Source: Candidatus Kryptonium sp.
GTDB taxonomy: Bacteria > Bacteroidota > Ignavibacteria > Kryptoniales > Kryptoniaceae
DNA: 64,000 nucleotides
Assembly (NCBI GenBank): GCA_025060635.1
Contig: JANXBN010000004.1
Location: forward strand, 1-64,000
Direction of reading: 5' to 3'
A program made the translations under genes and the position numbers. Numbering within the stretch: the first letter of the stretch is position 1; each line of letters opens with the position of its first letter. Under the pieces are notes generated by a model. That model was not told the origin of the DNA and did not search any database. It saw only the letters and a program-made list of their open reading frames with translations. Below are positions 34,424-49,237 of the stretch, piece by piece.

Positions 34424-36829
34424 ATGATAAGAAAAATTTTAATATTTGTAATTTTAATTTCAACCTTTTCGTTCAGATTATCTGCGCAGACAAATGCCGA
34501 TTGTTTCTCTTGCCATGATGATAAAACCTTAACCATGGAAAAGAATGGCAAAGTTATATCCCTCTATGTTGATCCCAAAAAGTTTGAGGCTTCGGTTCAT
34601 GGTTCATTAAGTTGCGTTGATTGTCATGAGAATTTCAATCCTGAGGAGATTCCGCACAAGGAAAAGATAGAACCTGTAAATTGTTCTTCCTGTCATTTAG
34701 ATGCTGTTAAGGGATTTGAGTTAAGCAAACATTCAAAGAAGATCAACTGCGCTTCTTGCCACGGAGATGCTCATGAGTTGGTCAAAACATCAAAAGTTAA
34801 TTTTGTAAGCAGATGTTCGGCATGTCATACAAAGGAATTTCAAGATTACAAGGTGAGCGTACATTTTAGCTCTAAGGGAGGATCTGATTGCATCTCTTGT
34901 CATGGATATCACGCAATAAAAATTGCCTCATCAGATGTTTGTATTAAATGTCATAGTGATAAAAGAATTGTTCAGGAGCATCAGGAGTTTGTTTTGAAAT
35001 ATAGAGAGAGCATCCATGCAAAATATATAAATTGTTCTGATTGTCATACAGGGCATAAAATTTTGAAGGCAAGTGATCCAAATTCAACTGTTGCGAGGGC
35101 AAACATCGGAAAAACATGTGAGAAATGTCATGAACAGATAGCGAGAAATTATTTTGAATCAGACCACGGTAAAGCTTTTATAAGTGGCTTTGAAAGCGCT
35201 CCATCTTGTACAGATTGCCATGGTGAGCATGACATAATGAGGGTTACAAGTGCGGAGTCAAAGATAAGTAGAGCAAATGAGGTAGGGGTTTGCCTGAAGT
35301 GCCATCTTGATAATCCCGAGGTAAGGAAAAGAATGACGCATGTTCCATCTTTTATAGCCTCGTATGAGAATAGCATTCACGGAAGATTGTTCCACGCTGG
35401 TAATCATGAAGCAGCTGTTTGTAGTGATTGTCATGGTGCACACGAAATGATGAAGGTAAGCAATCCAAGCTCAAAAGTTTATAAGCTTAATATATCTTCA
35501 ACTTGTGGTAAATGTCATCAGGAAATATCAAAAGATTTTAATGAAAGTATACATGGCGTTGCCCTTTCAAAGGGTAATTTTGATTCCCCGACTTGCACTG
35601 ATTGTCATGGGGAACATTTGATCCTTGAGCCAAATGATCCACGCTCGCCAGTTGCTCCACGAAATGTCGCACTTCAGCTTTGTTCAAAATGTCACGCATC
35701 TGTAAAGCTATCTGAAAAGTATGGACTTCCTGCTGATAAGTTTAAAACATTTACGGATAGTTATCATGGTTTAAATGTTCGTCTCGGAAATGTTGAAGCG
35801 GCAAATTGTGCAAGCTGTCATGGGGTTCACGATATTTTACCTTCTTCTGATCCGCGGTCACGGGTTCATAAGGCAAATCTTGTAAATACATGTGGACAGT
35901 GTCATCCCGGAGCCAATGAAAACTTTGTGAAAGGGAAAGTTCATGTAACGGTTGCAAGCTCGGATGAAAAAATTATTTATTGGGTATCAACAATTTATAT
36001 AGTTTTAATAGTATCAATCGTCGGCTCAATGTTCATTCATAACCTGCTTGATTGGATAAGGAAGACAATAGATAAGTATAAGCAAAAACATTCAGGATTA
36101 TTTTATTCAACAGATGAATCTCGGAGAAAGACGAATCTTTATTTAAGGATGACGCTTGAGGAAAGAATACAGCATTTTGTTCTCCTCGTGAGTTTCTTCA
36201 CTCTTGTGATAACTGGATTTATGCTTGCTTTCCCAGATGCTTGGTGGGTTATAGCTATAAGAAACATAGTAGGTGGCGAAGCGGTTTTCAAATATAGAGG
36301 ATTAATTCATAGAATTGCAGCTGTTTTGCTCGTTCTTGATTCAATTTATCATCTTTATTACATTATCTTCACCAAGAGAGGACGTGAGTTTATCAAGGAC
36401 ATAATGTTCAAAACGCAAGACATAAAAGATATGATTCAAGTTTTAAAATACAATCTTGGGCTTTCAAAGGAAAAACCGAAGTTCGGGAGGTTTAACTATA
36501 TTGAAAAGAGCGAATATTGGGCTTTAATTTGGGGAACCGTAGTAATGACTGTAACTGGTATTGTTCTATGGTTTGAAAATCATTTCATGGGATGGTTTTC
36601 AAAGACATTTGTTGATGTATGCAACACAATTCATTACTTTGAAGCGTGGCTTGCGTTTCTTGCGATAATTGTCTGGCATATTTACTATGTCGTCTTCAAT
36701 CCCGATGTTTATCCTATGAACTTTGCTTGGATCACCGGTTATTTAACCGAGGAAGAAATGGAAAAAGAACATCCGCTTGAACTTGAAAAAATAAAACTCC
36801 AAGAAATTAAAAAAGGGGAACTTGTATGA
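34424..36829 (+). CDS. 17-haem cytochrome c fused to b561-type cytochrome b
   Basis: This 801-residue protein has a signal peptide (ending RLSAQ), then a periplasmic part to about residue 510 with 17 CXXCH motifs. Repeats of about 65 residues (SIHG...CxDCHGxH...DPxS...TCxKCH) hold two haems each. About five transmembrane helices follow. His residues in RIQHFVLL, LIHRIA, IYHLYY and VWHIYYV are placed like the b-haem ligands of cytochrome b561/Ni-Fe hydrogenase b subunits. The plan resembles Geobacter CbcL (about nine c haems plus a b module) but with more haems. It would oxidise quinol and pass electrons to periplasmic cytochromes, or do the reverse. It is the first gene of a tight operon. Confidence 0.92.
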   Translation: MIRKILIFVILISTFSFRLSAQTNADCFSCHDDKTLTMEKNGKVISLYVDPKKFEASVHGSLSCVDCHENFNPEEIPHKEKIEPVNCSSCHLDAVKGFELSKHSKKINCASCHGDAHELVKTSKVNFVSRCSACHTKEFQDYKVSVHFSSKGGSDCISCHGYHAIKIASSDVCIKCHSDKRIVQEHQEFVLKYRESIHAKYINCSDCHTGHKILKASDPNSTVARANIGKTCEKCHEQIARNYFESDHGKAFISGFESAPSCTDCHGEHDIMRVTSAESKISRANEVGVCLKCHLDNPEVRKRMTHVPSFIASYENSIHGRLFHAGNHEAAVCSDCHGAHEMMKVSNPSSKVYKLNISSTCGKCHQEISKDFNESIHGVALSKGNFDSPTCTDCHGEHLILEPNDPRSPVAPRNVALQLCSKCHASVKLSEKYGLPADKFKTFTDSYHGLNVRLGNVEAANCASCHGVHDILPSSDPRSRVHKANLVNTCGQCHPGANENFVKGKVHVTVASSDEKIIYWVSTIYIVLIVSIVGSMFIHNLLDWIRKTIDKYKQKHSGLFYSTDESRRKTNLYLRMTLEERIQHFVLLVSFFTLVITGFMLAFPDAWWVIAIRNIVGGEAVFKYRGLIHRIAAVLLVLDSIYHLYYIIFTKRGREFIKDIMFKTQDIKDMIQVLKYNLGLSKEKPKFGRFNYIEKSEYWALIWGTVVMTVTGIVLWFENHFMGWFSKTFVDVCNTIHYFEAWLAFLAIIVWHIYYVVFNPDVYPMNFAWITGYLTEEEMEKEHPLELEKIKLQEIKKGELV

Positions 36830-37083
36830 GCTGTGAAGAAAAAGAAATTAAAAACATAATGATTGAGATTTTGAAAGTTGCAATTGAAAGGGAAAAAGAT
36901 TCTTTTGATTATTACTATTCGGCTTCATTAAAAGCATGCGAGCCAAGAGTTCAAAAGTTTTTGCTTGAACTTGCAGAGATGGAAAAGGAACATCGCAGAT
37001 TGCTTGAAGAAAAATTAAAGGAGCTTGAATCCGAGGTTTCAGTCCTTGATGGAATAAGGTCAAGTTTTGAATATTATGAATAA
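36826..37083 (+). CDS. Half-size ferritin/rubrerythrin-like protein
   Basis: This 85-residue cytoplasmic protein is two helices with the pattern of one half of a ferritin-like four-helix bundle. Glu residues at 21-23 (AIEREKDSFDYYYSAS) and the ExxH motif EMEKEHRRL (Glu53, His56) are placed like rubrerythrin di-iron ligands. A dimer could build one di-iron site. There is no rubredoxin domain or signal peptide. It sits inside the cytochrome operon, with its ATG overlapping the previous stop, which is unusual for a soluble iron or peroxide protein. It may protect against peroxide or sense iron. The role is inferred. Confidence 0.72.
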   Translation: MSCEEKEIKNIMIEILKVAIEREKDSFDYYYSASLKACEPRVQKFLLELAEMEKEHRRLLEEKLKELESEVSVLDGIRSSFEYYE

Positions 37084-37097
37084 AATATGGAGTTGAA

Positions 37098-37787
37098 ATG
37101 AGGCAGGAGAAAGGAATTTTGCGTTTCTCTCTGTCGTGGAGAATTCAGCATTTCCTTTTGATGGTAAGCGTAGTGCTTTTGATAATAACTGGTTTTGCCT
37201 TAAGGTATCATGATACCTGGTTTGGAAAATTTTTGATATTCATTGAGGGAGGTTTTGAAGCGAGGGGAACTTTGCATAGGGTTTCAGCAGTGCTTCTTTT
37301 TATTACAGCAATTTATCATTTGATTTATATCCTTTTTACGAGCGAAGGACGAAGGGAATTTAGAGAACTGTTGCCGAGGAAAAAGGATTTTGCTGATTTC
37401 CTTGAAAGTGTAAAATATGACATTGGGAAAAATGAGAATCCACCGATGTATGGTAGATATTCTTATAAAGAGAAAATTCAATACTGGGCTTTCTTTATCT
37501 TTGTTGTGCTGATGATACTAAGTGGGTTTGTTTTATGGTTTCATAATTATCTTTTTGGGGTTTTACCGAAGTGGTTTTTTGACCTTTCGCAGGCATTACA
37601 TAGTGCGACTGCGACGCTTATAATAACTTTTCTTGTGCTGTGGCATCTTTATCTTGTTCACTTTTCACCTGGTAATTTTCCAATGAATGCTTCTTTCTGG
37701 CATGGCTATGTTTCAGAAGATTGGCTCAAGGAAAATCATTATCTTGAATATCTTGAGATAAAAAATAAGGAAAGTGGAAAGACATGA
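37098..37787 (+). CDS. b561-type cytochrome b membrane subunit
   Basis: This 229-residue protein has about four to five transmembrane helices. His18 (RIQHFLL), His60 (TLHRVS), His74 (IYHLIYI) and a His near residue 190 (VLWHLYLVHF) match b-haem ligands of the cytochrome b561/formate-dehydrogenase gamma family. It aligns with the C-terminal part of 34424-36829 and with 38828-39709. It has no c-haem motif. Its stop overlaps the start of the nine-haem cytochrome (ATGA), which it probably serves as the quinol-oxidising membrane partner. Confidence 0.85.
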   Translation: MRQEKGILRFSLSWRIQHFLLMVSVVLLIITGFALRYHDTWFGKFLIFIEGGFEARGTLHRVSAVLLFITAIYHLIYILFTSEGRREFRELLPRKKDFADFLESVKYDIGKNENPPMYGRYSYKEKIQYWAFFIFVVLMILSGFVLWFHNYLFGVLPKWFFDLSQALHSATATLIITFLVLWHLYLVHFSPGNFPMNASFWHGYVSEDWLKENHYLEYLEIKNKESGKT

Positions 37788-38824
37788 AAAAGTTTTGGTT
37801 GTTGACAGTTTTTGTTCTCTTCTTTGTTGAATTTTCAATTTCACAGATCAAGAATGAGCGATGTTTCATTTGCCACGGTGTGAAAAATTTTGGAATTGTT
37901 GAGCGTGGGGAATTTAAATCGCTTTATGTTTCAAAAGAAGATTATGAAACCTCGGTTCATGGTAAATTTGCCTGTGTTTCCTGTCATGTTGATGTCCGCG
38001 TTATACCGCATTTAACAAAGCCTCAGAAGATCCACTGCTTGCAATGTCACTTTGAAGGTAATGTCGTTGGAGCTCCAGTTACAGCGAAACCTGAAAAATA
38101 TAAAGAAAGTATACACGGAAGAGCACTTGCAAAAGGTAAAAATGCTCCAGATTGTAAGGATTGTCATACAGTTCATTATGTCAAAAAGCCGGAAGATCCA
38201 AATTCAAGCGTTTTTAAAACAAATGTCCCAGAACTCTGCGGAAGATGTCATCAAATCGCAAAAGAGGAGTACTATAACTCAATTCATTGGGCTGGAATTC
38301 AAAAGGGTGAATTAGCTGCAGCAGTTTGCACAGATTGTCATCGTGAGCATGATATCTTGCCTCCGGAAGACCCGAGATCAAGCTTAAATCCTAAAAATGT
38401 CGTTGCGACATGTGATAAGTGTCATTCCGATGTAAAATTAATGAAAAGGGTTGGTGTTCCTGTTAAGAATCCAGAAGCATATAAAGAAAACTTTCACGGC
38501 ATAGCGTTGAAGTTTGGAGTTGTAAGAGCTGCTAATTGTGCTTCATGTCATGAATATCATAATGTTTTACCATCGCGAGATCCGAGATCCCCAATTCATC
38601 CAGCAAATCTTGCAAAAACTTGTGGAAAGTGTCATCCGAGGGCGAATGAAAATGTTGCGAAAGGGAAATTTCATGTTTTGCCTGGGGAGAAGGATTCAGG
38701 AATTGTTTATTATGTTTATACATTCTTTAAGTGGTTCACAGTAATTGTGTTGGCGGGGCTTTTTACGCACATAATACTTGATTTGATCGGACATATAAGA
38801 AGGAAAAGAAAAAAGAGCGAATAA
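37784..38824 (+). CDS. Nine-haem cytochrome c with C-terminal membrane anchor
   Basis: This 346-residue protein has a signal peptide (ending SISQ), nine CXXCH motifs (CFICH, CVSCH, CLQCH, CKDCH, CGRCH, CTDCH, CDKCH, CASCH, CGKCH) and one C-terminal helix followed by a basic tail (HIRRKRKKSE). It is clearly paralogous to the last part of the 17-haem protein: both have ANCASCH...LPS.DPRS..H.ANL..TCG.CHP.ANEN near the anchor. It should be held in the inner membrane, facing the periplasm. With the cytochrome b encoded before and after it, it forms a split version of the fused module in 34424-36829. Confidence 0.92.
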   Translation: MKKFWLLTVFVLFFVEFSISQIKNERCFICHGVKNFGIVERGEFKSLYVSKEDYETSVHGKFACVSCHVDVRVIPHLTKPQKIHCLQCHFEGNVVGAPVTAKPEKYKESIHGRALAKGKNAPDCKDCHTVHYVKKPEDPNSSVFKTNVPELCGRCHQIAKEEYYNSIHWAGIQKGELAAAVCTDCHREHDILPPEDPRSSLNPKNVVATCDKCHSDVKLMKRVGVPVKNPEAYKENFHGIALKFGVVRAANCASCHEYHNVLPSRDPRSPIHPANLAKTCGKCHPRANENVAKGKFHVLPGEKDSGIVYYVYTFFKWFTVIVLAGLFTHIILDLIGHIRRKRKKSE

Positions 38825-38827
38825 ACC

Positions 38828-39709
38828 ATGGATGTGAGAAAGGAAGCTGAAAAATTGATCAATGAAGTTGAAAAGGAAAAAGGCATCACGCTTGACGATG
38901 AATTCAAAGAAAAATTGAAAGATGAGATTGCGGAAAAGATAAAAGTTGAAATTGAACGAAAGAAGAGAGAAGAAGAGAAGAAAACTAAATCTGCTAAAGA
39001 AGAAGAGGAATACTTTATTCGTTTTAGCTTGAATATTCGGCTTCAGCATTTGACACTTGCTATCGGTGTCCTATTGCTGATAATAACAGGACTACCTGTT
39101 AAATTTCATGAGTCAAAATGGGCTGAGCTATTCTTTAATTTAATAGGCGGAATACAGGTATCAAGATTTCTCCATAGAGTTGGTGCGGTTTTACTTATAT
39201 TTGTCTCAATTTGGCATACGATTTATATTGCGTTTACAAAAGAAGGAAGGAACGAGTTCAAAGAACTTCTACCTCGGAAAAAGGACTTTCTTGATTTCTG
39301 GCAAAATATAAAATACATGCTTGGAAAGACGAACGAGAGACCTAAGTATGGAAGATACTCATACATTGAAAAATTTGATTACTGGGCTGTTTATTGGGGA
39401 ATGGTTATAATGGTTGTGTCTGGTTTGATTTTGTGGTTTCATAATTTCTTCCTTGCAATTTTTCCCAAATTTGTCTTTGATATAGCAAAGGAAGCTCATT
39501 CAGATGAAGCTATGTTAGCAACTCTTGCGATTGTAGTGTGGCACTGGTATAATGCTCATTTTAATCCGCACATTTTCCCGTTTAATCCAACGATATTCAC
39601 GGGAAAAATTTCAAAAGAGAGAATGATACGAGAACATCCACTGGAATATGAGAAAATTATGCGAGAGAAACTTATGAAGGAGGAAAAGTCAGATGAAAAG
39701 CAAGCGTAA
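38828..39709 (+). CDS. Cytochrome b (b561 type) with charged N-terminal extension
   Basis: This 293-residue protein begins with about 62 highly charged residues predicted as a cytoplasmic coiled coil (EKLINEVEKEKGITLDDEF...KVEIERKKREEEKK). A b561-like membrane part with at least four helices follows, with His in RLQHLTL, FLHRVGA, IWHTIYI and VVWHWYNAHF at the haem-ligand places. It is the closest relative of 37098-37787 in the window. It follows the nine-haem gene by 3 bp and overlaps the next gene by 17 bp. The extension is absent from its two paralogues here and may dock a cytoplasmic partner. Confidence 0.85.
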   Translation: MDVRKEAEKLINEVEKEKGITLDDEFKEKLKDEIAEKIKVEIERKKREEEKKTKSAKEEEEYFIRFSLNIRLQHLTLAIGVLLLIITGLPVKFHESKWAELFFNLIGGIQVSRFLHRVGAVLLIFVSIWHTIYIAFTKEGRNEFKELLPRKKDFLDFWQNIKYMLGKTNERPKYGRYSYIEKFDYWAVYWGMVIMVVSGLILWFHNFFLAIFPKFVFDIAKEAHSDEAMLATLAIVVWHWYNAHFNPHIFPFNPTIFTGKISKERMIREHPLEYEKIMREKLMKEEKSDEKQA

Positions 39710-41687: not shown

Positions 41688-43640
41688 ATGACTACAGCAA
41701 GGAAAAATAAGATATTCTTAAAGTTTGGCGTAGGAATCCTCATAGCTTTGTTTGTTTTGGCTTTTTCTGCCGAATTTACATCTCGTCCATCGTTTTGCCC
41801 AACTTGTCATTATATGGAGCCATTTTATGAAAGCTGGAAAACATCTACGCATAAAGATGTGACATGTGTGAAGTGCCATTTCCCGCCAGGATTTGCTGGC
41901 ACAGTGAGAGGCAAAGTTGAAGGGCTTGTTCAACTTGTAAATTATTTCGCTCGTTCATATACAAAAAGGAAACCTTGGGCAGAAATTTCGGATGAATCAT
42001 GTCTGCAAAGTGGATGTCATGACACACGATTATTGAAAGGAAAAGTGGTTTATAAGGGCGTCGTTTTTGATCATGTTCCTCATCTTGAGGAGATGAGGCG
42101 AGGAAAGAAGTTAAGATGCACAAGCTGTCATTCGCAGATTGTTCAAGGTGAGCACATAACAGTTACTGAAACAACCTGCTTTCTTTGTCATTTTAAGAGA
42201 GATGGAGATATTGAGCTAGTGCTTTATAAAAAGTTATCAAATTGTCAAACTTGTCATCACTGGGAGCTGATCTCAAAAAATGAAATGGCTAAATATAGAT
42301 TTGATCATTCTGAAGTTGTCAAGAGAAAAATTGAATGTGTCCATTGCCATACTAACACAATAGTTGGAGATGGATTCGTTCCAAGGGAAAATTGTTATGC
42401 TTGTCATTTTGACCATGCACGTTTAAGCCAATATGAAAATACAACGCTTCTTCACAGAGTTCATATTACGGAACACAAAATTGAATGTATTCAATGTCAT
42501 CTGACAATTCAGCATAAAGTCAATAAAACAATCTCCGATGAGAAATTGGATTGCGGTTCATGTCATATAAATGAACACACAACTCAAACGCTTCTTTTTG
42601 CTGGAAAAGATATCAATGGCCTAAATGGAGAACCAGATCCTATGTTTGAAGCTGGATTAAGTTGTGCAAGTTGTCATACTTTTCATAATGATGTGACAGA
42701 TAAAGGGAAAACAAGGAGTTCTCATTTGAAATCTTGTGAAACATGTCACGAGAAAGGTTATACAAAGCTTTTTGCGTTATGGAAGGAATCTATCGCTGAA
42801 AAAATATATAAGTTGAAACAGCAAATTCATATCGTTGATTCGCTTGTGAAAAATGTATCAAGAGCAAGAGAATATGTTGAGAAAGCAAGAAACGCAGTTT
42901 TTATAGTTGAATCAGGCAAGGCGGTTCACAATATAAAATATTCAGATCAAATAATTATCAGCGGGTATAGATATCTCGTTGAGGCTTTGAAAATCGCGAA
43001 GATAAATTATGATGTCTCGGATTTCTTTGTTTCCTCAAAAGTTCCCAAAGAATGTGCAAATTGCCATGCAGGGATTGAGAGTATAACTAATCCTATTTAT
43101 AGCACTTTATTTTCGCATTCAACTCATGTCCAGAAAAGAGACATCAAATGTGGTGTTTGTCATTCAAATGTGAGAAAGCATGGCGAGTTAATTTTGACAA
43201 AAGATAAATGTAATTCTTGCCATCACCAAAATTTAACAGCTGAAGGTTGTAAAACATGTCACCAAGTAGAAAACGAAATTTATATTGGAGCTTTTATGGG
43301 GAAGAATATACCTGATGTAATGCATCAAGCTGGCGTTGAATGTGCTGATTGTCATGTTTTGAATAACAAAGTTCTAAAACCTGATGAGAAAGCGTGTCTT
43401 AACTGTCATGAATCTGGTTATGATGATATGGCTGTTGATTGGAAAAACGATGTGAAAAAATTTGTTGAAGAGATTAAAGCCTTGAGCTTAAGGTATTTTG
43501 AAAAAGACAAGGATGAAATTTTAAAAATAGTCAATCAACTTGAGCGACACGGAGCCGGTGGATTGCACAACTATAGCTTGACTATTGAAGTGCTTAATGA
43601 TTTGAAAAGAAAGATGAGTGTATCCATAGGAAAAAGGTAG
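41688..43640 (+). CDS. 18-haem NapC/NirT-anchored cytochrome c, paralogue with CX4CH site
   Basis: This 650-residue protein is a paralogue of the preceding gene. It has a membrane anchor (residues 12-28), CPTCHYMEPFYESWKTSTH, and 18 haem sites in the same order. Seventeen are CXXCH. The third is CLQSGCH (CX4CH), where the paralogue has CIECH. The GxHN segments are weaker (GKAVHNIKY, GAGGLHNYS). CX4CH sites can bind haem c but often need a special lyase or give an unusual environment. It probably works in the same inner-membrane quinol-to-periplasm step as its neighbour, perhaps at a different potential. Confidence 0.9.
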   Translation: MTTARKNKIFLKFGVGILIALFVLAFSAEFTSRPSFCPTCHYMEPFYESWKTSTHKDVTCVKCHFPPGFAGTVRGKVEGLVQLVNYFARSYTKRKPWAEISDESCLQSGCHDTRLLKGKVVYKGVVFDHVPHLEEMRRGKKLRCTSCHSQIVQGEHITVTETTCFLCHFKRDGDIELVLYKKLSNCQTCHHWELISKNEMAKYRFDHSEVVKRKIECVHCHTNTIVGDGFVPRENCYACHFDHARLSQYENTTLLHRVHITEHKIECIQCHLTIQHKVNKTISDEKLDCGSCHINEHTTQTLLFAGKDINGLNGEPDPMFEAGLSCASCHTFHNDVTDKGKTRSSHLKSCETCHEKGYTKLFALWKESIAEKIYKLKQQIHIVDSLVKNVSRAREYVEKARNAVFIVESGKAVHNIKYSDQIIISGYRYLVEALKIAKINYDVSDFFVSSKVPKECANCHAGIESITNPIYSTLFSHSTHVQKRDIKCGVCHSNVRKHGELILTKDKCNSCHHQNLTAEGCKTCHQVENEIYIGAFMGKNIPDVMHQAGVECADCHVLNNKVLKPDEKACLNCHESGYDDMAVDWKNDVKKFVEEIKALSLRYFEKDKDEILKIVNQLERHGAGGLHNYSLTIEVLNDLKRKMSVSIGKR

Positions 43641-43705: not shown

Positions 43706-44260
43706 ATGAAAAAATACTTAATCAGTCTGCTTATACTTCCATTCGTTTTTAACTATCTATTTTCTCAAGGGGCTCCAAAATTCAAATATGTTGGCGTTTC
43801 TGTTTGTGCTCCTTGCCACAGGGGTGAGAAGAAAGGTAAGATGTTTGAAATCTGGCAAGCAAGTAAACATGCCAAAGCTTATGAAACTTTAAAGACTGAA
43901 CAATCAAAAAAGATCGCGCAACAAAAGGGGATTAAAGTTCCTCCACATGAAGCACCTGAGTGCTTGAAGTGTCATGTCACTGGTTATGGTGCACCGAAAG
44001 AGGCATTTTTGGAGAGGTTTAAAATTGAAGATGGTGTTCAATGTGAAGCTTGTCATGGACCTGGTTCAGAGTATAAAGCTTTGAAAATAATGCAAAGCAG
44101 AGAAGAATCAATAAAGAATGGACTTATTTTGGTGCTGGTTGCTGATGGAAGCGCTGAAAAGCAATGTAGAACATGTCACAATGAGGAAAGCCCAACATTC
44201 AAAGGATTTAATTTCAAAGAAGCATGGGCTCAAATAGCACATCCATTGCCAAAGCAATAA
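43706..44260 (+). CDS. Tetrahaem cytochrome c554-like protein
   Basis: This 184-residue periplasmic protein has a signal peptide (ending YLFSQ) and four CXXCH motifs (CAPCH near 34, CLKCH, CEACHGPGS and CRTCH). The spacing and the motifs YVGVSVCAPCHRGEKKG, IWQASKHAKAYETL and GVQCEACHGPGSEY are typical of the cytochrome c554 family. Such proteins carry electrons between periplasmic partners. A GGAGGAG ribosome-binding site and its own promoter precede it, and a terminator hairpin follows. It probably bridges inner-membrane cytochromes and the outer-membrane part of the system. Confidence 0.9.
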   Translation: MKKYLISLLILPFVFNYLFSQGAPKFKYVGVSVCAPCHRGEKKGKMFEIWQASKHAKAYETLKTEQSKKIAQQKGIKVPPHEAPECLKCHVTGYGAPKEAFLERFKIEDGVQCEACHGPGSEYKALKIMQSREESIKNGLILVLVADGSAEKQCRTCHNEESPTFKGFNFKEAWAQIAHPLPKQ

Positions 44261-44354: not shown

Positions 44355-44765
44355 ATGATAAGATCAAGACGCAAATTTTTAGAGGGTATCGTTAAACTTG
44401 GGATCATTGGTGCTTTCTATTCGTTCTTTAAAATCTTCGTCCCTGGAACATTGAAATCCCAGGAGAAACCCATAAAAATTGGAAAAGTGGATGAATTTAA
44501 ACCAGATACTGGAAAAATAATTAGAATTGATAAGAAACCTGTGCTTCTCCTTCGTCTTGAAAATGGTGAGTTCAGGGCGTTTTCGGGCTTTTGCACGCAT
44601 AAGAACTGTATAGTCCAATATCGTAGCGATATGAAAGCGATATGGTGTGCTTGTCATAAAGGTAAATTTGATCTTGAAGGTAAAAACATAGAAGGACCGC
44701 CACCAAGACCACTTGACAGGTTTAGAGTTATCATAGAAAAAGGCGAGGTTTATATAGCAATGTAA
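44355..44765 (+). CDS. Tat-exported Rieske iron-sulfur protein
   Basis: This 136-residue protein has a twin-arginine signal (RSRRKFLEG) and one hydrophobic segment (about 12-30). The 2Fe-2S site is complete: CTHKNC (Cys80, His82, Cys85) and CACHKGKFD (Cys98, Cys100, His101), so the disulfide pair of classical Rieske proteins is present. A GPPPRPLDRF motif follows, as usual. It would be held on the periplasmic face of the inner membrane. No bc1-type cytochrome b is in the window; the three cytochrome b genes here are the b561 type. It may accept electrons from one of them or from the multihaem proteins. Confidence 0.9.
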   Translation: MIRSRRKFLEGIVKLGIIGAFYSFFKIFVPGTLKSQEKPIKIGKVDEFKPDTGKIIRIDKKPVLLLRLENGEFRAFSGFCTHKNCIVQYRSDMKAIWCACHKGKFDLEGKNIEGPPPRPLDRFRVIIEKGEVYIAM

Positions 44766-44814
44766 ATTAAATTTCATCGTAGTTCTTTGCTTTAAAATTA
44801 AAAATCAATCAAAG

Positions 44815-46080
44815 ATGAAAATACTAATTTTTCTTCTCATACCAGCGATCTTATTCTCGCAAAATCTGAATCTTCGCCTTACGACAACCGCTTACATGTG
44901 GCAAAGATATGAAACGCCAGAAGCTAAAACGAATCATCTCAGAGCATTCCAACTTGCACAGTTAACACTAAGCAAAGGCAACATTTCACTGCATTCTTTT
45001 GTGAATCTTTCCAATGATTTTAGAGAAAGGCAAACCGATGATCCTGCGTTGAGATTTTATAATTTTTATCTAAACTGGCGAAATATATTCAACCGATTCA
45101 ACCTTAAACTTGGTAGATTTGCTGTTTATTCAGGGGTTGGAGTTGGAACAATTGATGGAGCTTATGTCAATGCAAAGATAACGAAATTTTTGAGCGCAAA
45201 TGTTTACGGTGGGTTCCTGATGCCACAGAACCAGAAATTTTCACTTAACGATGATCCCCGAAATAATCATATGTTCGGAGGGCAACTAAAACTTTCCTTA
45301 GGTTCATTAAACGCATCTTTAAGTTACTTTAACCAGCATCGTAAACCTAAAACTTATGAAGCATTGCGCGCGGATAGCCTTGGTGATGTCTTCGTTCAGG
45401 AAATAAACTTGACCTCCTCACAATATCAGATAGTCAGCGGTGATCTAAATTATGAATTCTCAATTTTTGAGGTTTATTCACGAATTGATTACGACATTAA
45501 TAATGTTAAAATTTCAAGGGGCGAAGTTTCAGCGGGCGTTAATTTGTTTAATAAATTAAAATTAAGCGCTAGCTATGATTACCGCGATCCGAGGATCCCA
45601 GTGAATTCAATTTTTGCTGTTTTTAATTATGGGGTAACAAAAGAGATTGAAGTGGGAATACACTATAGAATCTCACATCTTCTCAGAATTTACACTGGTT
45701 TCTCAAATGTTAATTATGTTGATGACAAATCTCAAAGAATTATTGCTGGATTTGATGCGGGATATGCTTCCATTAATTTTGCGAAACGGCTCGGCTATGC
45801 TGGTGAACTTGATGGTGTTTCTGCACAAGTTTATTATCCGATGTTTAATAACAAATTTATACCGAATGCAACTTTAAGTTACGCTTCTTACAAACTCTGG
45901 GAAGGTGGCGAGAAGAACAAGAATCTTGTTGTGGGACTTGGTGCAAATGTTAAGTTAAATAACGCAATTTCTTTTGACATTCAATCGCACTATATCCAGA
46001 ACCGAATTTACAAATCTGATTTCAGAATTTTCTTCAAGTTCAATTACTGGTTGTTTACAAACATCGGTCTTATCAAATGA
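44815..46080 (+). CDS. Outer-membrane beta-barrel, probable porin of a porin-cytochrome conduit
   Basis: This 421-residue protein has a signal peptide (ending ILFSQ). The rest is alternating hydrophobic/polar beta strands rich in Tyr, Asn and Phe (NLNLRLTTTAYMWQRYETPEAKT at the start, IFFKFNYWLFTNIGLIK at the end). It has no haem motif. It is flanked by the tetrahaem/Rieske genes and by two multihaem cytochrome genes (14 and 8 haems). That is the layout of porin-cytochrome conduits such as MtrAB or OmaB-OmbB, but it is smaller than MtrB (about 700 residues) and I cannot recognise its family. The barrel is well supported; the conduit role is inferred. Confidence 0.8.
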   Translation: MKILIFLLIPAILFSQNLNLRLTTTAYMWQRYETPEAKTNHLRAFQLAQLTLSKGNISLHSFVNLSNDFRERQTDDPALRFYNFYLNWRNIFNRFNLKLGRFAVYSGVGVGTIDGAYVNAKITKFLSANVYGGFLMPQNQKFSLNDDPRNNHMFGGQLKLSLGSLNASLSYFNQHRKPKTYEALRADSLGDVFVQEINLTSSQYQIVSGDLNYEFSIFEVYSRIDYDINNVKISRGEVSAGVNLFNKLKLSASYDYRDPRIPVNSIFAVFNYGVTKEIEVGIHYRISHLLRIYTGFSNVNYVDDKSQRIIAGFDAGYASINFAKRLGYAGELDGVSAQVYYPMFNNKFIPNATLSYASYKLWEGGEKNKNLVVGLGANVKLNNAISFDIQSHYIQNRIYKSDFRIFFKFNYWLFTNIGLIK

Positions 46081-46100: not shown

Positions 46101-47318
46101 ATGAAAATTTGGAAGCTTTTAACTTTTTATGTCTTATCAATTTTGCTGATCCCGCTTTCTTTCGTTTTTGTCGCTTTTTCGGATTCAAAGACATCCGAGC
46201 GGGAGGAATTTTATGGAGACAATGTGAAACAATGGATGAATGTTAAGTTTTCTCATAAATTTCACGCAGAAAATGTAGGTTCCGAATGTACTGATTGCCA
46301 TGCTGACGCTTTAACAAGTGAGAAGGCATCCGATTTTCTCCTTCCTAAACAGGAAACTTGTTTCAATTGTCATGATCAGGAATCAACGCCTTGTGAATAT
46401 TGTCACACTGATACTAAGAACATGGTCCCATATGAAGCGCCTGTGAGAAAAATTATATTCTCTCATAAGTTTCACATTGAAAATCAAAAGTTAAATTGTC
46501 TTGATTGTCACGCTGGGGCTGATAAAGTTGACTACGCAACACCTGAGCATCTACCAAGTATGGAAAACTGCTTCACTTGTCATAATAATCGCACAGCAAC
46601 GAACGAATGCGAATCATGTCATATAGAAACGGTTACGCTCTTGCCAGCAAGCCATAAGGTTGTTGATTTTGCATCTGAGCATAAGAAATTTGTTCGTGCG
46701 GGTGGAGCTGAAAACAATTGTATTACTTGCCATACTGATGATTTCTGTCAACAGTGTCATGATGGTGTTAATCTTGTAAGAGTTCAACTCACGGGTGGAG
46801 ATTCCAATATACCATTTACACCGCAAAGTTCAGGTAAACAATCGCTGGTTTTACAAAGAGTGCATGATTTGAATTATCGTTATACGCATGGAATTGATGC
46901 GAAAACTAAAGAAAAAGATTGTTATGTTTGTCATGATCGTCAAACATTTTGCGGTGGTTGCCATGCTCCAAATGGTAATATAGCTTTAAGTCAAGTTAAG
47001 CCTGAATGGCACAGCGGTAATGATTTTACAACAATTGGGGTTGGCACAGGTGGAGGAAGACACGCAAAGCTTGCAAAGCGAGATATTGAGATGTGTATGA
47101 GTTGCCATGATACAGAGGGTGCTGATCCAACTTGCATAATGTGTCATGTTGATAGAAATCCTGGGCTTGGTAACGACCCCAAAACCCATCCGAAAAATTA
47201 TATGAGAGATGTGAATGGTGACTGGCATACCAACGATGGCTCGGTGTGTTATAGCTGTCATATTAATACAAGGAAATCTGGATTTGGTTTCTGTGGTTAT
47301 TGTCACGGAGCAAAATAA
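46101..47318 (+). CDS. 14-haem periplasmic cytochrome c (cytochrome c3/c7-like repeats)
   Basis: This 405-residue protein has a hydrophobic N-terminus (signal or anchor) and 14 CXXCH motifs. The first six form two copies of a three-haem unit, FSHKFHxEN...CxDCH...CFxCH...CExCH, resembling cytochrome c7/c3. The later part has CITCH, CQQCH, CYVCH, CGGCH, CMSCH, CIMCH, CYSCH and CGYCH. With the adjacent beta-barrel it could be the periplasmic cytochrome that inserts in the pore. It has no lipobox. The 20-bp gap to the barrel gene and 19-bp gap to the next cytochrome gene suggest one transcript. Confidence 0.92.
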   Translation: MKIWKLLTFYVLSILLIPLSFVFVAFSDSKTSEREEFYGDNVKQWMNVKFSHKFHAENVGSECTDCHADALTSEKASDFLLPKQETCFNCHDQESTPCEYCHTDTKNMVPYEAPVRKIIFSHKFHIENQKLNCLDCHAGADKVDYATPEHLPSMENCFTCHNNRTATNECESCHIETVTLLPASHKVVDFASEHKKFVRAGGAENNCITCHTDDFCQQCHDGVNLVRVQLTGGDSNIPFTPQSSGKQSLVLQRVHDLNYRYTHGIDAKTKEKDCYVCHDRQTFCGGCHAPNGNIALSQVKPEWHSGNDFTTIGVGTGGGRHAKLAKRDIEMCMSCHDTEGADPTCIMCHVDRNPGLGNDPKTHPKNYMRDVNGDWHTNDGSVCYSCHINTRKSGFGFCGYCHGAK

Positions 47319-47337: not shown

Positions 47338-48498
47338 ATGAAAGCAAGAGTTTTAATTCTGTTCGCGCTCATCTCAATAATCTTTTTATCGTGTAGCCAG
47401 CTAAAAGAGGATGTACTAACACCACCAGTTTCAGCAAAATTAACATACAAGGACGACATAAAAAAAATACTTGATGAAAGTTGTGTAAGATGTCATAATG
47501 TGAATTCTCAAGATTTTGATCTTTCAACATATTTTGGAATAGTTCAGAGCGGAATTGCTATTCCTGGAGATCCAACAAGTAAAATAATCCTTGTTACTCA
47601 GCCGGGCGGAAGCAAAAGACAATTTCTTGGGGACGATGCACCTGCAAAAGCGGAAAAAATTAGAAAATGGGTTGTTGAAGATAGCATCGCATATGGAACC
47701 ATAAAAATACATCCGTCTGACTGGGTTCAAGTCACAAGCCCAAATTCACATGGAAAATTTTTAAGAAGCATTCGTTGGGACTTTGATAATTGTAAGCAAT
47801 GCCATGGAAGCAATTACACAGGTGGGGTAAGTAAGTCATCTTGCTATACCTGTCATAACACTCCCGCTGGACCTGAGGCTTGCAATACATGCCATGGAAA
47901 TCTTCAAAATTCTGCACCACCAAGGGATTTAAATAATAATTTCTCTGCTTCTGCGCGCGGTGTCGGCGCACATCAGGTTCATTTAAAAGGTGGGCAAATT
48001 TCTTCTGGATATGATTGTGTTGAGTGTCATATACAAGTAACCTCTCTAAGAACCCCAGGGCATCTTGATAATACACCTTATGCTGAAATAGTTTTCAATG
48101 ATAGCGCTCTTGCAAAGAATAGAACACCAATTGGAATTGGTGAATACCTTGTTCCAAATCCAGTTTATTCTTTTGATAATTTAACTTGCTCAAATACATA
48201 TTGTCACGGTTATTTTAGAAATGGAAATTTGAACAACGCTCCAAAATGGAATGTCGTTGATGGTACTCAAGCAAGATGTGGAACTTGTCATGGATTACCA
48301 CCGGGTGGGACGCATCCAAGGGTTTCAGCAACATCGTGTGCTACCGCTTGTCATAATGATGTGGTGGAACTTCAAGCTGGTCAACTTCGCATAAAAGATA
48401 AGACAAAGCATGTAAACGGGAAGTTAAGCTTATATGGATATGAGTTGGAATTTACTGAAAAAGAAATAAGAAAAATTTCCGCTTTGAATTTGAAATAG
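47338..48498 (+). CDS. Eight-haem lipoprotein cytochrome c with CX4CH and CX3CH sites
   Basis: This 386-residue lipoprotein has a signal ending IIFLSC (Cys near 19). The N-terminal part has the cytochrome pattern ILDESCVRCHN...FLGDDAP. There are six CXXCH sites (CVRCH, CKQCH, CYTCH, CNTCH, CVECH, CGTCH), one CX4CH (CSNTYCHG, near 286) and one CX3CH (CATACHN). The CX4CH-then-CXXCH pair (CSNTYCH...CGTCHGLPPGGTH) matches the Geobacter-type motif family GSu_C4xC__C2xCH. Lipid attachment and position after the barrel gene suggest an outer-membrane, possibly surface, terminal cytochrome. It is the last gene of the locus. Confidence 0.9.
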   Translation: MKARVLILFALISIIFLSCSQLKEDVLTPPVSAKLTYKDDIKKILDESCVRCHNVNSQDFDLSTYFGIVQSGIAIPGDPTSKIILVTQPGGSKRQFLGDDAPAKAEKIRKWVVEDSIAYGTIKIHPSDWVQVTSPNSHGKFLRSIRWDFDNCKQCHGSNYTGGVSKSSCYTCHNTPAGPEACNTCHGNLQNSAPPRDLNNNFSASARGVGAHQVHLKGGQISSGYDCVECHIQVTSLRTPGHLDNTPYAEIVFNDSALAKNRTPIGIGEYLVPNPVYSFDNLTCSNTYCHGYFRNGNLNNAPKWNVVDGTQARCGTCHGLPPGGTHPRVSATSCATACHNDVVELQAGQLRIKDKTKHVNGKLSLYGYELEFTEKEIRKISALNLK

Positions 48499-48568
48499 GC
48501 AAGCGATGGAGTAATTTTTGCCCTCCGATTTGTTTTTATTATAAAAAAACGATATGCAAAGGCGGAGG
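48498..48568 (+). promoter_or_regulatory. Alternative hairpins at the start of the queuosine-precursor transporter gene
   Basis: GGCAA (48498-48502) can pair with TTGCC (48518-48522). CCCTCCG (48521-48527) can pair with CGGAGGG (48562-48568), which lies in codons 3-5 of the gene. The two helices share bases 48521-48522, so they cannot both form. The second would bury the start codon region. This layout is like an attenuator or riboswitch; it does not fit the preQ1-I consensus that I know. Confidence 0.35.
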
Positions 48569-49237
48569 GTATATAAGTACTATGACCTTGTGATGGCTTC
48601 TTTTGTCACCGTTTTATTATGTGCAAATATAATTGGGGCAGAGAAAGTAGTTAACATATATGGCTTTTCTTTTGGCGCTGGTGTGTTGTTCTTTCCGATA
48701 AGCTATATTTTTAACGATATTTTAACCGAGGTTTATGGATACTCACGCTCCAGAAAGGTTATATGGGCAGGATTTGGTGCTTTGATTTTCGCTTCAATTA
48801 TGAGCTGGTTTGTTCGTAAACTTCCACCTGATCCAAGCTGGCCTTATCAGGAGGCATATGATATTGTGTTCGGGCAAACACCGAGAATCGCAATCGCATC
48901 AATAGTAGCATTTTGGGCTGGGGAATTTACAAATTCATTCGTGCTTGCCAAAATGAAACTCTTAACAAGGGGAAGGTTTCTATGGACGAGGACAATCGGT
49001 TCAACAATTGCTGGAGAAGCAGTTGATTCGCTTATTTTCTATCCAGTTGCGTTTTATGGGTTTTGGACAAATGAACTTCTAATTAAAGTCATGATAACAA
49101 ACTACGCAATTAAAGTCGGATGGGAAGCTTTAATTACCCCAATCACTTATAAAATTGTCAATTTCTTGAAAAAAGCAGAAAATGAAGATTATTACGACTG
49201 GAACACAGATTTCAATCCGTTTAAGGTGGAAGTTTAA
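48554..49237 (+). CDS. yhhQ: Queuosine precursor transporter (YhhQ family)
   Basis: This 227-residue membrane protein has six or so helices and matches the VUT/YhhQ family: LLCANIIGAEKVVNIYGFSFGAGVLFFPISYIFNDILTEVYGY near the start, and TRTIGSTIAGEAVDSLIFYPVAFYG later. Such proteins import preQ0/preQ1 or queuine for tRNA modification. The start at ATG 48554 lacks a clear ribosome-binding site and sits inside a possible hairpin. It follows the cytochrome locus by 55 bp, but no functional link is seen. The family call is strong; the precise substrate is not. Confidence 0.9.
   Translation: MQRRRVYKYYDLVMASFVTVLLCANIIGAEKVVNIYGFSFGAGVLFFPISYIFNDILTEVYGYSRSRKVIWAGFGALIFASIMSWFVRKLPPDPSWPYQEAYDIVFGQTPRIAIASIVAFWAGEFTNSFVLAKMKLLTRGRFLWTRTIGSTIAGEAVDSLIFYPVAFYGFWTNELLIKVMITNYAIKVGWEALITPITYKIVNFLKKAENEDYYDWNTDFNPFKVEV

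What the first reader, a model, noticed from the sequence alone, without database searches (positions are those of the whole stretch)
34424..39709. Fused and split versions of one b/c cytochrome module side by side
34424-36829 is a single protein with a 17-haem domain and cytochrome b. 37784-38824 (nine haems) is homologous to its C-terminal periplasmic part including the anchor, and 37098-37787 and 38828-39709 are homologous to its cytochrome b part. The locus therefore holds a fusion and its unfused counterpart, pointing to duplication with fusion or fission and to separate functions for each.
Basis: seen in the sequence. Interest (0 to 1): 0.62.

Follow-up and report, generated by a model that had tools for sequence, protein, structure and literature searches.

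The report
Fused and split electron-exit cytochromes together
[quoted passage not shown] trees show the sets are old relatives brought side by side, not a recent local copy of one another.

Summary
FUS (34424-36829) has 17 c-haem motifs plus a di-haem cytochrome b. C9 (37784-38824) aligns with it haem for haem, lacking eight internal haems. B1 (37098-37787) and B2 (38828-39709) match its b domain, and all four b-haem histidines are kept.

The inferred local duplication is wrong. FUS, B1 and B2 b-domains form three separate, well-supported clades. B1 and B2 each group with counterparts in Zixibacteria, Methylomirabilota and Desulfobacterota MAGs. One clade of the three within the genus or order is rejected (p-AU 1.6e-43, 8e-74).

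Elsewhere the split genes lie in a recurring cassette, FUS-C11-B1-C9-B2-N in Desulfobacterota. There B1 follows its own 11-17-haem partner (C11), which is missing here. In the window B1-C9-B2-N18 sits inside an older FUS-N17-c554 unit that occurs without it in Calditrichota.

FUS fits the CbcL/MtrH/MtoC family of menaquinol:cytochrome c oxidoreductases. The best reading is two separable quinone-cytochrome units sharing one putative porin-cytochrome exit. Function is inferred, not shown. I call it a new variant of a known kind: the family is known, but I found no description of the cross-phylum cassette in the open-access papers searched.

The parts
34424..36829 (+). FUS: 801 aa, 17 CXXCH, anchor helix (~520-538) and C-terminal four-helix di-haem cytochrome b (PF01292; His584/629/737/752)
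36826..37083 (+). 85-aa rubrerythrin-like protein (PF02915), start overlaps the FUS stop; found in all 5 congeners whose locus was read; lies where C11-C17 lies in other phyla; role unknown
37098..37787 (+). B1: stand-alone di-haem cytochrome b; its usual c partner is missing here; lacks the Glu conserved next to a b-haem ligand in FUS and B2
37784..38824 (+). C9: nine-haem periplasmic cytochrome c with C-terminal membrane anchor, homologous to FUS 1-556 minus eight internal haems
38828..39709 (+). B2: stand-alone di-haem cytochrome b with a charged N-terminal extension of about 60 aa; partner of C9
39693..41681 (+). N18: 18-haem cytochrome with NapC/NrfH-like N-terminal anchor; travels with B1-C9-B2
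41688..43640 (+). N17: 17-haem cytochrome with NapC/NrfH-type anchor; partner of FUS in Calditrichota and relatives
43706..44260 (+). four-haem cytochrome c554-type protein, candidate periplasmic carrier
44815..46080 (+). 421-aa putative outer-membrane barrel of the exit conduit (no Pfam match; placed by conserved gene order)
46101..47318 (+). m14: 14-haem cytochrome beside the barrel gene
47338..48498 (+). m6: 6-8-haem cytochrome with a CX4CH-type motif (PF09698), possible surface partner

Best explanation
The region holds two related but separable quinone:cytochrome c oxidoreductase units of the CbcL superfamily, placed ahead of one putative porin-cytochrome exit conduit. Unit A is FUS with N17. 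Unit B is B1-C9-B2 with N18. Shown by sequence: unit B lies nested inside unit A's older order (FUS-N17-c554), both arrangements are ancient, and unit B is an optional cassette found in several phyla with its own c partner for B1 (C11-C17), which is missing here. Inferred: menaquinol is oxidised at the di-haem b domains, electrons pass to the periplasmic c domains and then to the NapC-anchored giant cytochromes, the c554-type carrier and the barrel/m14/m6 set. The two units would serve different redox conditions, as ImcH, CbcL and CbcBA do in Geobacter sulfurreducens. B1 and B2 probably both work with C9 here.
For: Four well-supported b-domain clades, FUS 100/98, B1 100/94, B2 98/91, D 100/100, reproduced after adding Desulfobacterota; an independent tree of the c part separates FUS, C9 and most B1-partner proteins in the same way. 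Unit A without unit B: FUS-N17-c554 in Calditrichota L070; the N17 tree groups window N17 with Calditrichota, as the FUS tree does. Unit B without FUS nearby: Zixibacteria loci L261, L262, L264. Cassettes in Desulfobacterota, Zixibacteria and Methylomirabilota. All b-haem ligands invariant. Genes overlap or abut from FUS to N17. dN/dS of FUS, B1, C9 and B2 is far below 1, though dS is near saturation. The FUS+c554+barrel+m14+m6 order recurs across the class. CbcL-type function and split CbcBA: PMC6295460, PMC9129911, PMC12307469.
Against: No expression, purification or mutant data exist for any gene here. Electron direction cannot be read from sequence; the CbcL/MtrH/MtoC family occurs in Fe(III) reducers and Fe(II) oxidisers (PMC6295460). 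Tight packing and repeated co-occurrence of unit B with FUS would fit one complex equally well. B1 has no separate c partner here. The barrel gene has no Pfam match.
Confidence: 0.55

Rival explanations
1. Local origin, the first reader's view: one b/c module was duplicated in this lineage and one copy was fused or split.
For: Adjacency and 40-45% identity.
Against: One clade of FUS+B1+B2 rejected for the genus (p-AU 1.6e-43) and the order (8e-74); each member groups with other phyla.
Confidence: 0.02
2. One obligate multi-b complex: FUS, B1, C9, B2 and a NapC-anchored giant cytochrome are subunits of a single inner-membrane enzyme with three quinone-reactive b domains.
For: Overlapping genes; FUS-C11-B1-C9-B2-N16 repeated in most of the Desulfobacterota loci that carry B2; 29 loci hold FUS together with B2 (18 of them with B1 as well), against 13 that hold B2 without FUS, several of them cut by contig ends (the counts include some duplicate records of one genome).
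Against: Each unit occurs without the other; in the window the units are nested and each has its own N protein.
Confidence: 0.27
3. The units run inwards: electrons from outside (Fe(II), a mineral, or a partner cell) reduce menaquinone. This overlaps with the best explanation in anatomy and differs in direction.
For: Homologues are found in Fe(II) oxidisers (PMC6295460), and CbcBA is proposed to run in reverse in Seep-SRB2 (PMC10553843).
Against: Nothing in the window favours this direction; reports on Ignavibacteria EET favour reduction of external acceptors (PMC7399161).
Confidence: 0.2
4. B1 is a relic left after loss of its c partner.
For: C11-C17 is present beside B1 in Zixibacteria, Methylomirabilota and Desulfobacterota and absent here; B1 has lost the Glu kept in FUS and B2.
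Against: All four ligand His are kept in 14/14; identity within the genus 86%, like C9; dN/dS 0.04-0.07. The Glu is also absent from most B1 proteins that still have a partner.
Confidence: 0.08

Closest known systems
CbcL/MtrH/MtoC family (G. sulfurreducens CbcL; MtrH; MtoC)
   Same: One protein with N-terminal multihaem c domain and C-terminal FdnI/HydC-like di-haem b domain; family range 3-23 haems and 416-1034 aa, mostly six predicted membrane segments (PMC6295460); FUS has 17 haems, 801 aa and six hydrophobic segments including the signal peptide.
   Different: CbcL has nine haems. FUS sits beside a second, split module and a NapC-anchored 17-haem protein. No direct sequence comparison with G. 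sulfurreducens CbcL was possible here.
CbcBA / Cbc5 (CbcEDCBA) of Geobacter
   Same: Separate b-type cytochrome and multihaem c proteins in one cluster, a menaquinol:cytochrome c oxidoreductase for very low potential (PMC11434368, PMC12307469).
   Different: Cbc5 has one b subunit; the cassette here has two stand-alone b proteins beside the fused one. Orthology not tested.
Mco of ANME archaea
   Same: Stand-alone hydrogenase-type cytochrome b next to a 7-11-haem c protein (PMC9012536).
   Different: Archaeal, VhtC-related b, methanophenazine, single b and c.
Porin-cytochrome (Pcc) clusters, including Ignavibacterium album
   Same: Outer-membrane barrel gene next to multihaem c genes, with inner-membrane cytochromes nearby (PMC4245776).
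   Different: Homology of the 44815-46080 barrel to known Pcc porins was not shown (no Pfam match).
E. coli FdnI (formate dehydrogenase-N gamma, PDB 1KQF)
   Same: All four b-haem ligand positions align.
   Different: No formate dehydrogenase subunits here; the c domain takes their place.

Membership tests
CbcL/MtrH/MtoC (FUS) | N-terminal domain with 3-23 CX2CH motifs | tested here: met
   17 motifs
CbcL/MtrH/MtoC (FUS) | C-terminal FdnI/HydC-like di-haem cytochrome b with conserved His | tested here: met
   PF01292 62.9 bits over cut-off 30.1; His584/629/737/752 align to FdnI ligands and are invariant
CbcL/MtrH/MtoC (FUS) | about six hydrophobic segments, 416-1034 aa | tested here: met
   six segments including the signal peptide, 801 aa
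CbcL/MtrH/MtoC (FUS) | sequence relation to characterised CbcL of G. sulfurreducens | not tested
   no named Geobacter sequence was available in the searches used
CbcL/MtrH/MtoC (FUS) | menaquinol oxidation and low-potential extracellular respiration | not testable with these tools
   needs mutants or purified protein
CbcBA / Cbc5 (B1-C9-B2) | separate b-type and multihaem c subunits in one operon | tested here: met
CbcBA / Cbc5 (B1-C9-B2) | subunit make-up of three c, one b and one membrane protein (CbcEDCBA) | tested here: not met
   window has two stand-alone b and C9 plus N18/N17; not filed as a member
CbcBA / Cbc5 (B1-C9-B2) | orthology of B1 or B2 to CbcB | not tested
   no CbcB sequence at hand
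NapC/NrfH-anchored multihaem cytochromes (N17, N18) | NapC/NrfH-type N-terminal domain | tested here: met
   PF03264 37.5 bits for N17 (cut-off 24.1); N18 only 23.5, just below it; TIGR03153 matches below cut-off. So met for N17, borderline for N18.
Pcc porin-cytochrome conduit | barrel gene with periplasmic and surface multihaem c genes | tested here: inconclusive
   conserved barrel-m14-m6 order across the class, but the barrel has no family match

The most novel reading that the evidence does not exclude
FUS-C11-B1-C9-B2-N is an undescribed inner-membrane enzyme with three quinone-reactive di-haem b domains and tens of c haems, shared by Desulfobacterota, Zixibacteria, Methylomirabilota and (reduced) this Bacteroidota order, and able to split or join electron streams between quinone and two cytochrome chains.
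Probability: 0.2. Interest if true: 0.78.

Novelty: new variant of a known kind. Interest (0 to 1): 0.5.

Why it matters
[quoted passage not shown] This locus gives a natural comparison of a fused and a split form of one module in one cell, and the cross-phylum cassette marks a candidate respiratory unit in lineages known mostly from metagenomes. It also shows that adjacency plus 40% identity does not mean local duplication.

Tried and rejected
(1) Recent fission of a C9-B2 fusion: C9 stops with TAA at 38822 and B2 starts in the same frame six bases on, and one search showed a 646-aa open frame. Other searches gave 351 and 294 aa; in G001 C9 and B2 overlap by 4 nt, so in other frames; the shared frame is a coincidence. 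(2) C9/FUS similarity as a CXXCH artefact: rejected by masking. (3) Recent transfer of unit B between the window's family and its sister family: the distance ratio (between families / within genus) is 2.7-3.3 for B1, C9 and B2, against 3.1 for c554 and 3.2 for FUS, so no sign of it; loss in part of the sister family fits better. Other flanking genes scatter (barrel 5.1, N18 2.2), so this is a rough check. (4) Calditrichota as donor of unit B: 0 of 40 genomes reach E 1e-60. (5) Rooting on the genome's other cytochrome b (L150): its frames gave no match to the group profiles; trees are rooted on the D clade (midpoint). (6) Which form is older: with that root the ancestor of FUS, B1 and B2 comes out split (P fused 0.01-0.05) and FUS as one fusion, with about nine switches in all; this rests on one deep root and is tentative. 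(7) Structure prediction was not run; monomer models would not decide subunit partnership.

Full report
What is there. The window (64 kb, 36% GC) lies in a draft genome whose named relatives are Ignavibacteria-type Bacteroidota MAGs (identical domain sequences link unnamed relatives to named contigs). From 34424 the strand carries FUS, a small rubrerythrin-like ORF, B1, C9, B2, N18, N17, a c554-type protein, a Rieske protein, a putative outer-membrane barrel, a 14-haem and a 6-8-haem cytochrome. Genes from FUS to N17 overlap or are at most 14 bases apart.

C9 matches FUS at both ends and lacks eight haems from its middle; all nine haem motifs align; with motifs masked the score is 360 against 31 for shuffles. 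B1 and B2 match the FUS b domain at 40-42%. The four His positions that bind the b haems of E. coli FdnI are conserved in every FUS, B1, B2 and D sequence examined (register; which FdnI residues are ligands is from my own knowledge of 1KQF). A Glu three residues after one ligand is present in 40/40 FUS and 18/18 B2 but in none of 14 B1; one Desulfobacterota B1 has it.

Origin. A careful tree of 82 b domains gives four clades: FUS 100/98, B1 100/94, B2 98/91 and D (partner of a 19-haem protein in Ignavibacteria and others) 100/100; FUS and B1 are sisters at 99/91. A single clade of the genus's FUS, B1 and B2 is rejected (p-AU 1.6e-43), as is one of the order (8e-74). Weaker results: B1 and B2 of the order as one clade, p 0.037; FUS of the two sister families as one clade, p 0.042. 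The c-domain tree separates FUS, C9 and the B1 partner in a similar way, with D as the outer group; the C9 group is one side of a branch except that one very long row attaches to it.

Distribution. B2 orthologues (E <= 1e-64) occur in 22 of 132 genomes of the Zixibacteria phylum, 2 of 95 of the Methylomirabilota phylum and 14 of 395 of the phylum holding a Syntrophaceae genome, called Desulfobacterota here (in one search the 14 reach E 1e-70), and in 0 of 40 Calditrichota at E 1e-60. Layouts read from DNA: FUS-C16/17-B1-C9-B2 or C11-C8-B2-N13-FUS in Zixibacteria, FUS-C11-B1-C9-B2-N13 in Methylomirabilota, FUS-C11-B1-C9-B2-N16 in Desulfobacterota. In the window's order the C11-C17 partner of B1 is absent. 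Within single loci, B1/B2 and D were never found together.

Nesting. Calditrichota L070 has FUS(17)-N17-c554, and its FUS and N17 are the nearest outside relatives of the window's. N18 is shared only with sister-family genomes that also have B1-C9-B2. So unit B (B1-C9-B2-N18) sits inside unit A (FUS-N17-c554). Sister-family genomes without unit B have FUS followed directly by c554. Distance ratios fit presence of unit B in the ancestor of both families and later loss. Some lateral exchange of unit A with Calditrichota is likely, direction unknown.

How it works. FUS fits the CbcL/MtrH/MtoC family (PMC6295460). CbcL of G. sulfurreducens joins nine c haems to a di-haem b domain and passes electrons to PpcA (PMC9129911). 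In that species ImcH, CbcL and CbcBA work at different potentials (PMC12307469). I infer the same logic here, with two units feeding one putative barrel/m14/m6 exit. Shown: homology, haem ligands, gene order, separate ancestry, low dN/dS. Inferred: quinone reaction, electron direction, partnership of B1 with C9, role of the barrel.

Limits. Many loci are MAG contigs that end within the cassette. GC-rich ORFs are extended by the simple gene caller, so B1 and B2 lengths in Methylomirabilota and some Desulfobacterota are upper bounds. The literature search covered open-access papers only.

Noticed in passing
window 44355-44815: A cytochrome b6-type protein and an 11-haem cytochrome lie between the Rieske gene and the barrel gene in four congeners (L035-L038) but are missing here; only 49 bases separate them. 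The left-over Rieske evolves faster than its neighbours (dN 0.31-0.35)..
   Followed up: partly
window 36826-37083: An 85-aa rubrerythrin-like ORF overlapping the FUS stop, present in all five congeners read and not seen in the sister family; a similar ORF occurs in L056 (10618-10866)..
   Followed up: partly
L053 5419-8171; L119 5662-7794: The FUS orthologue itself is split into c and b genes in G034 and in a Syntrophaceae MAG, two independent cases.
   Followed up: partly
L087, L091, L093, L098, L099, L105 versus L047, L051, L081: The 19-haem D module next to FUS is fused to its cytochrome b in some genomes and separate in others, so fusion and fission are frequent in this superfamily.
   Followed up: partly
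L070 4064-8562; window 34424-36829 and 41688-43640: FUS and N17 of the window's genus are closest to a Calditrichota MAG, suggesting lateral exchange of this pair.
   Followed up: partly
window 48554-49237: Putative vitamin uptake transporter (PF02592) just after the cytochrome cluster, probably its end.
   Followed up: no
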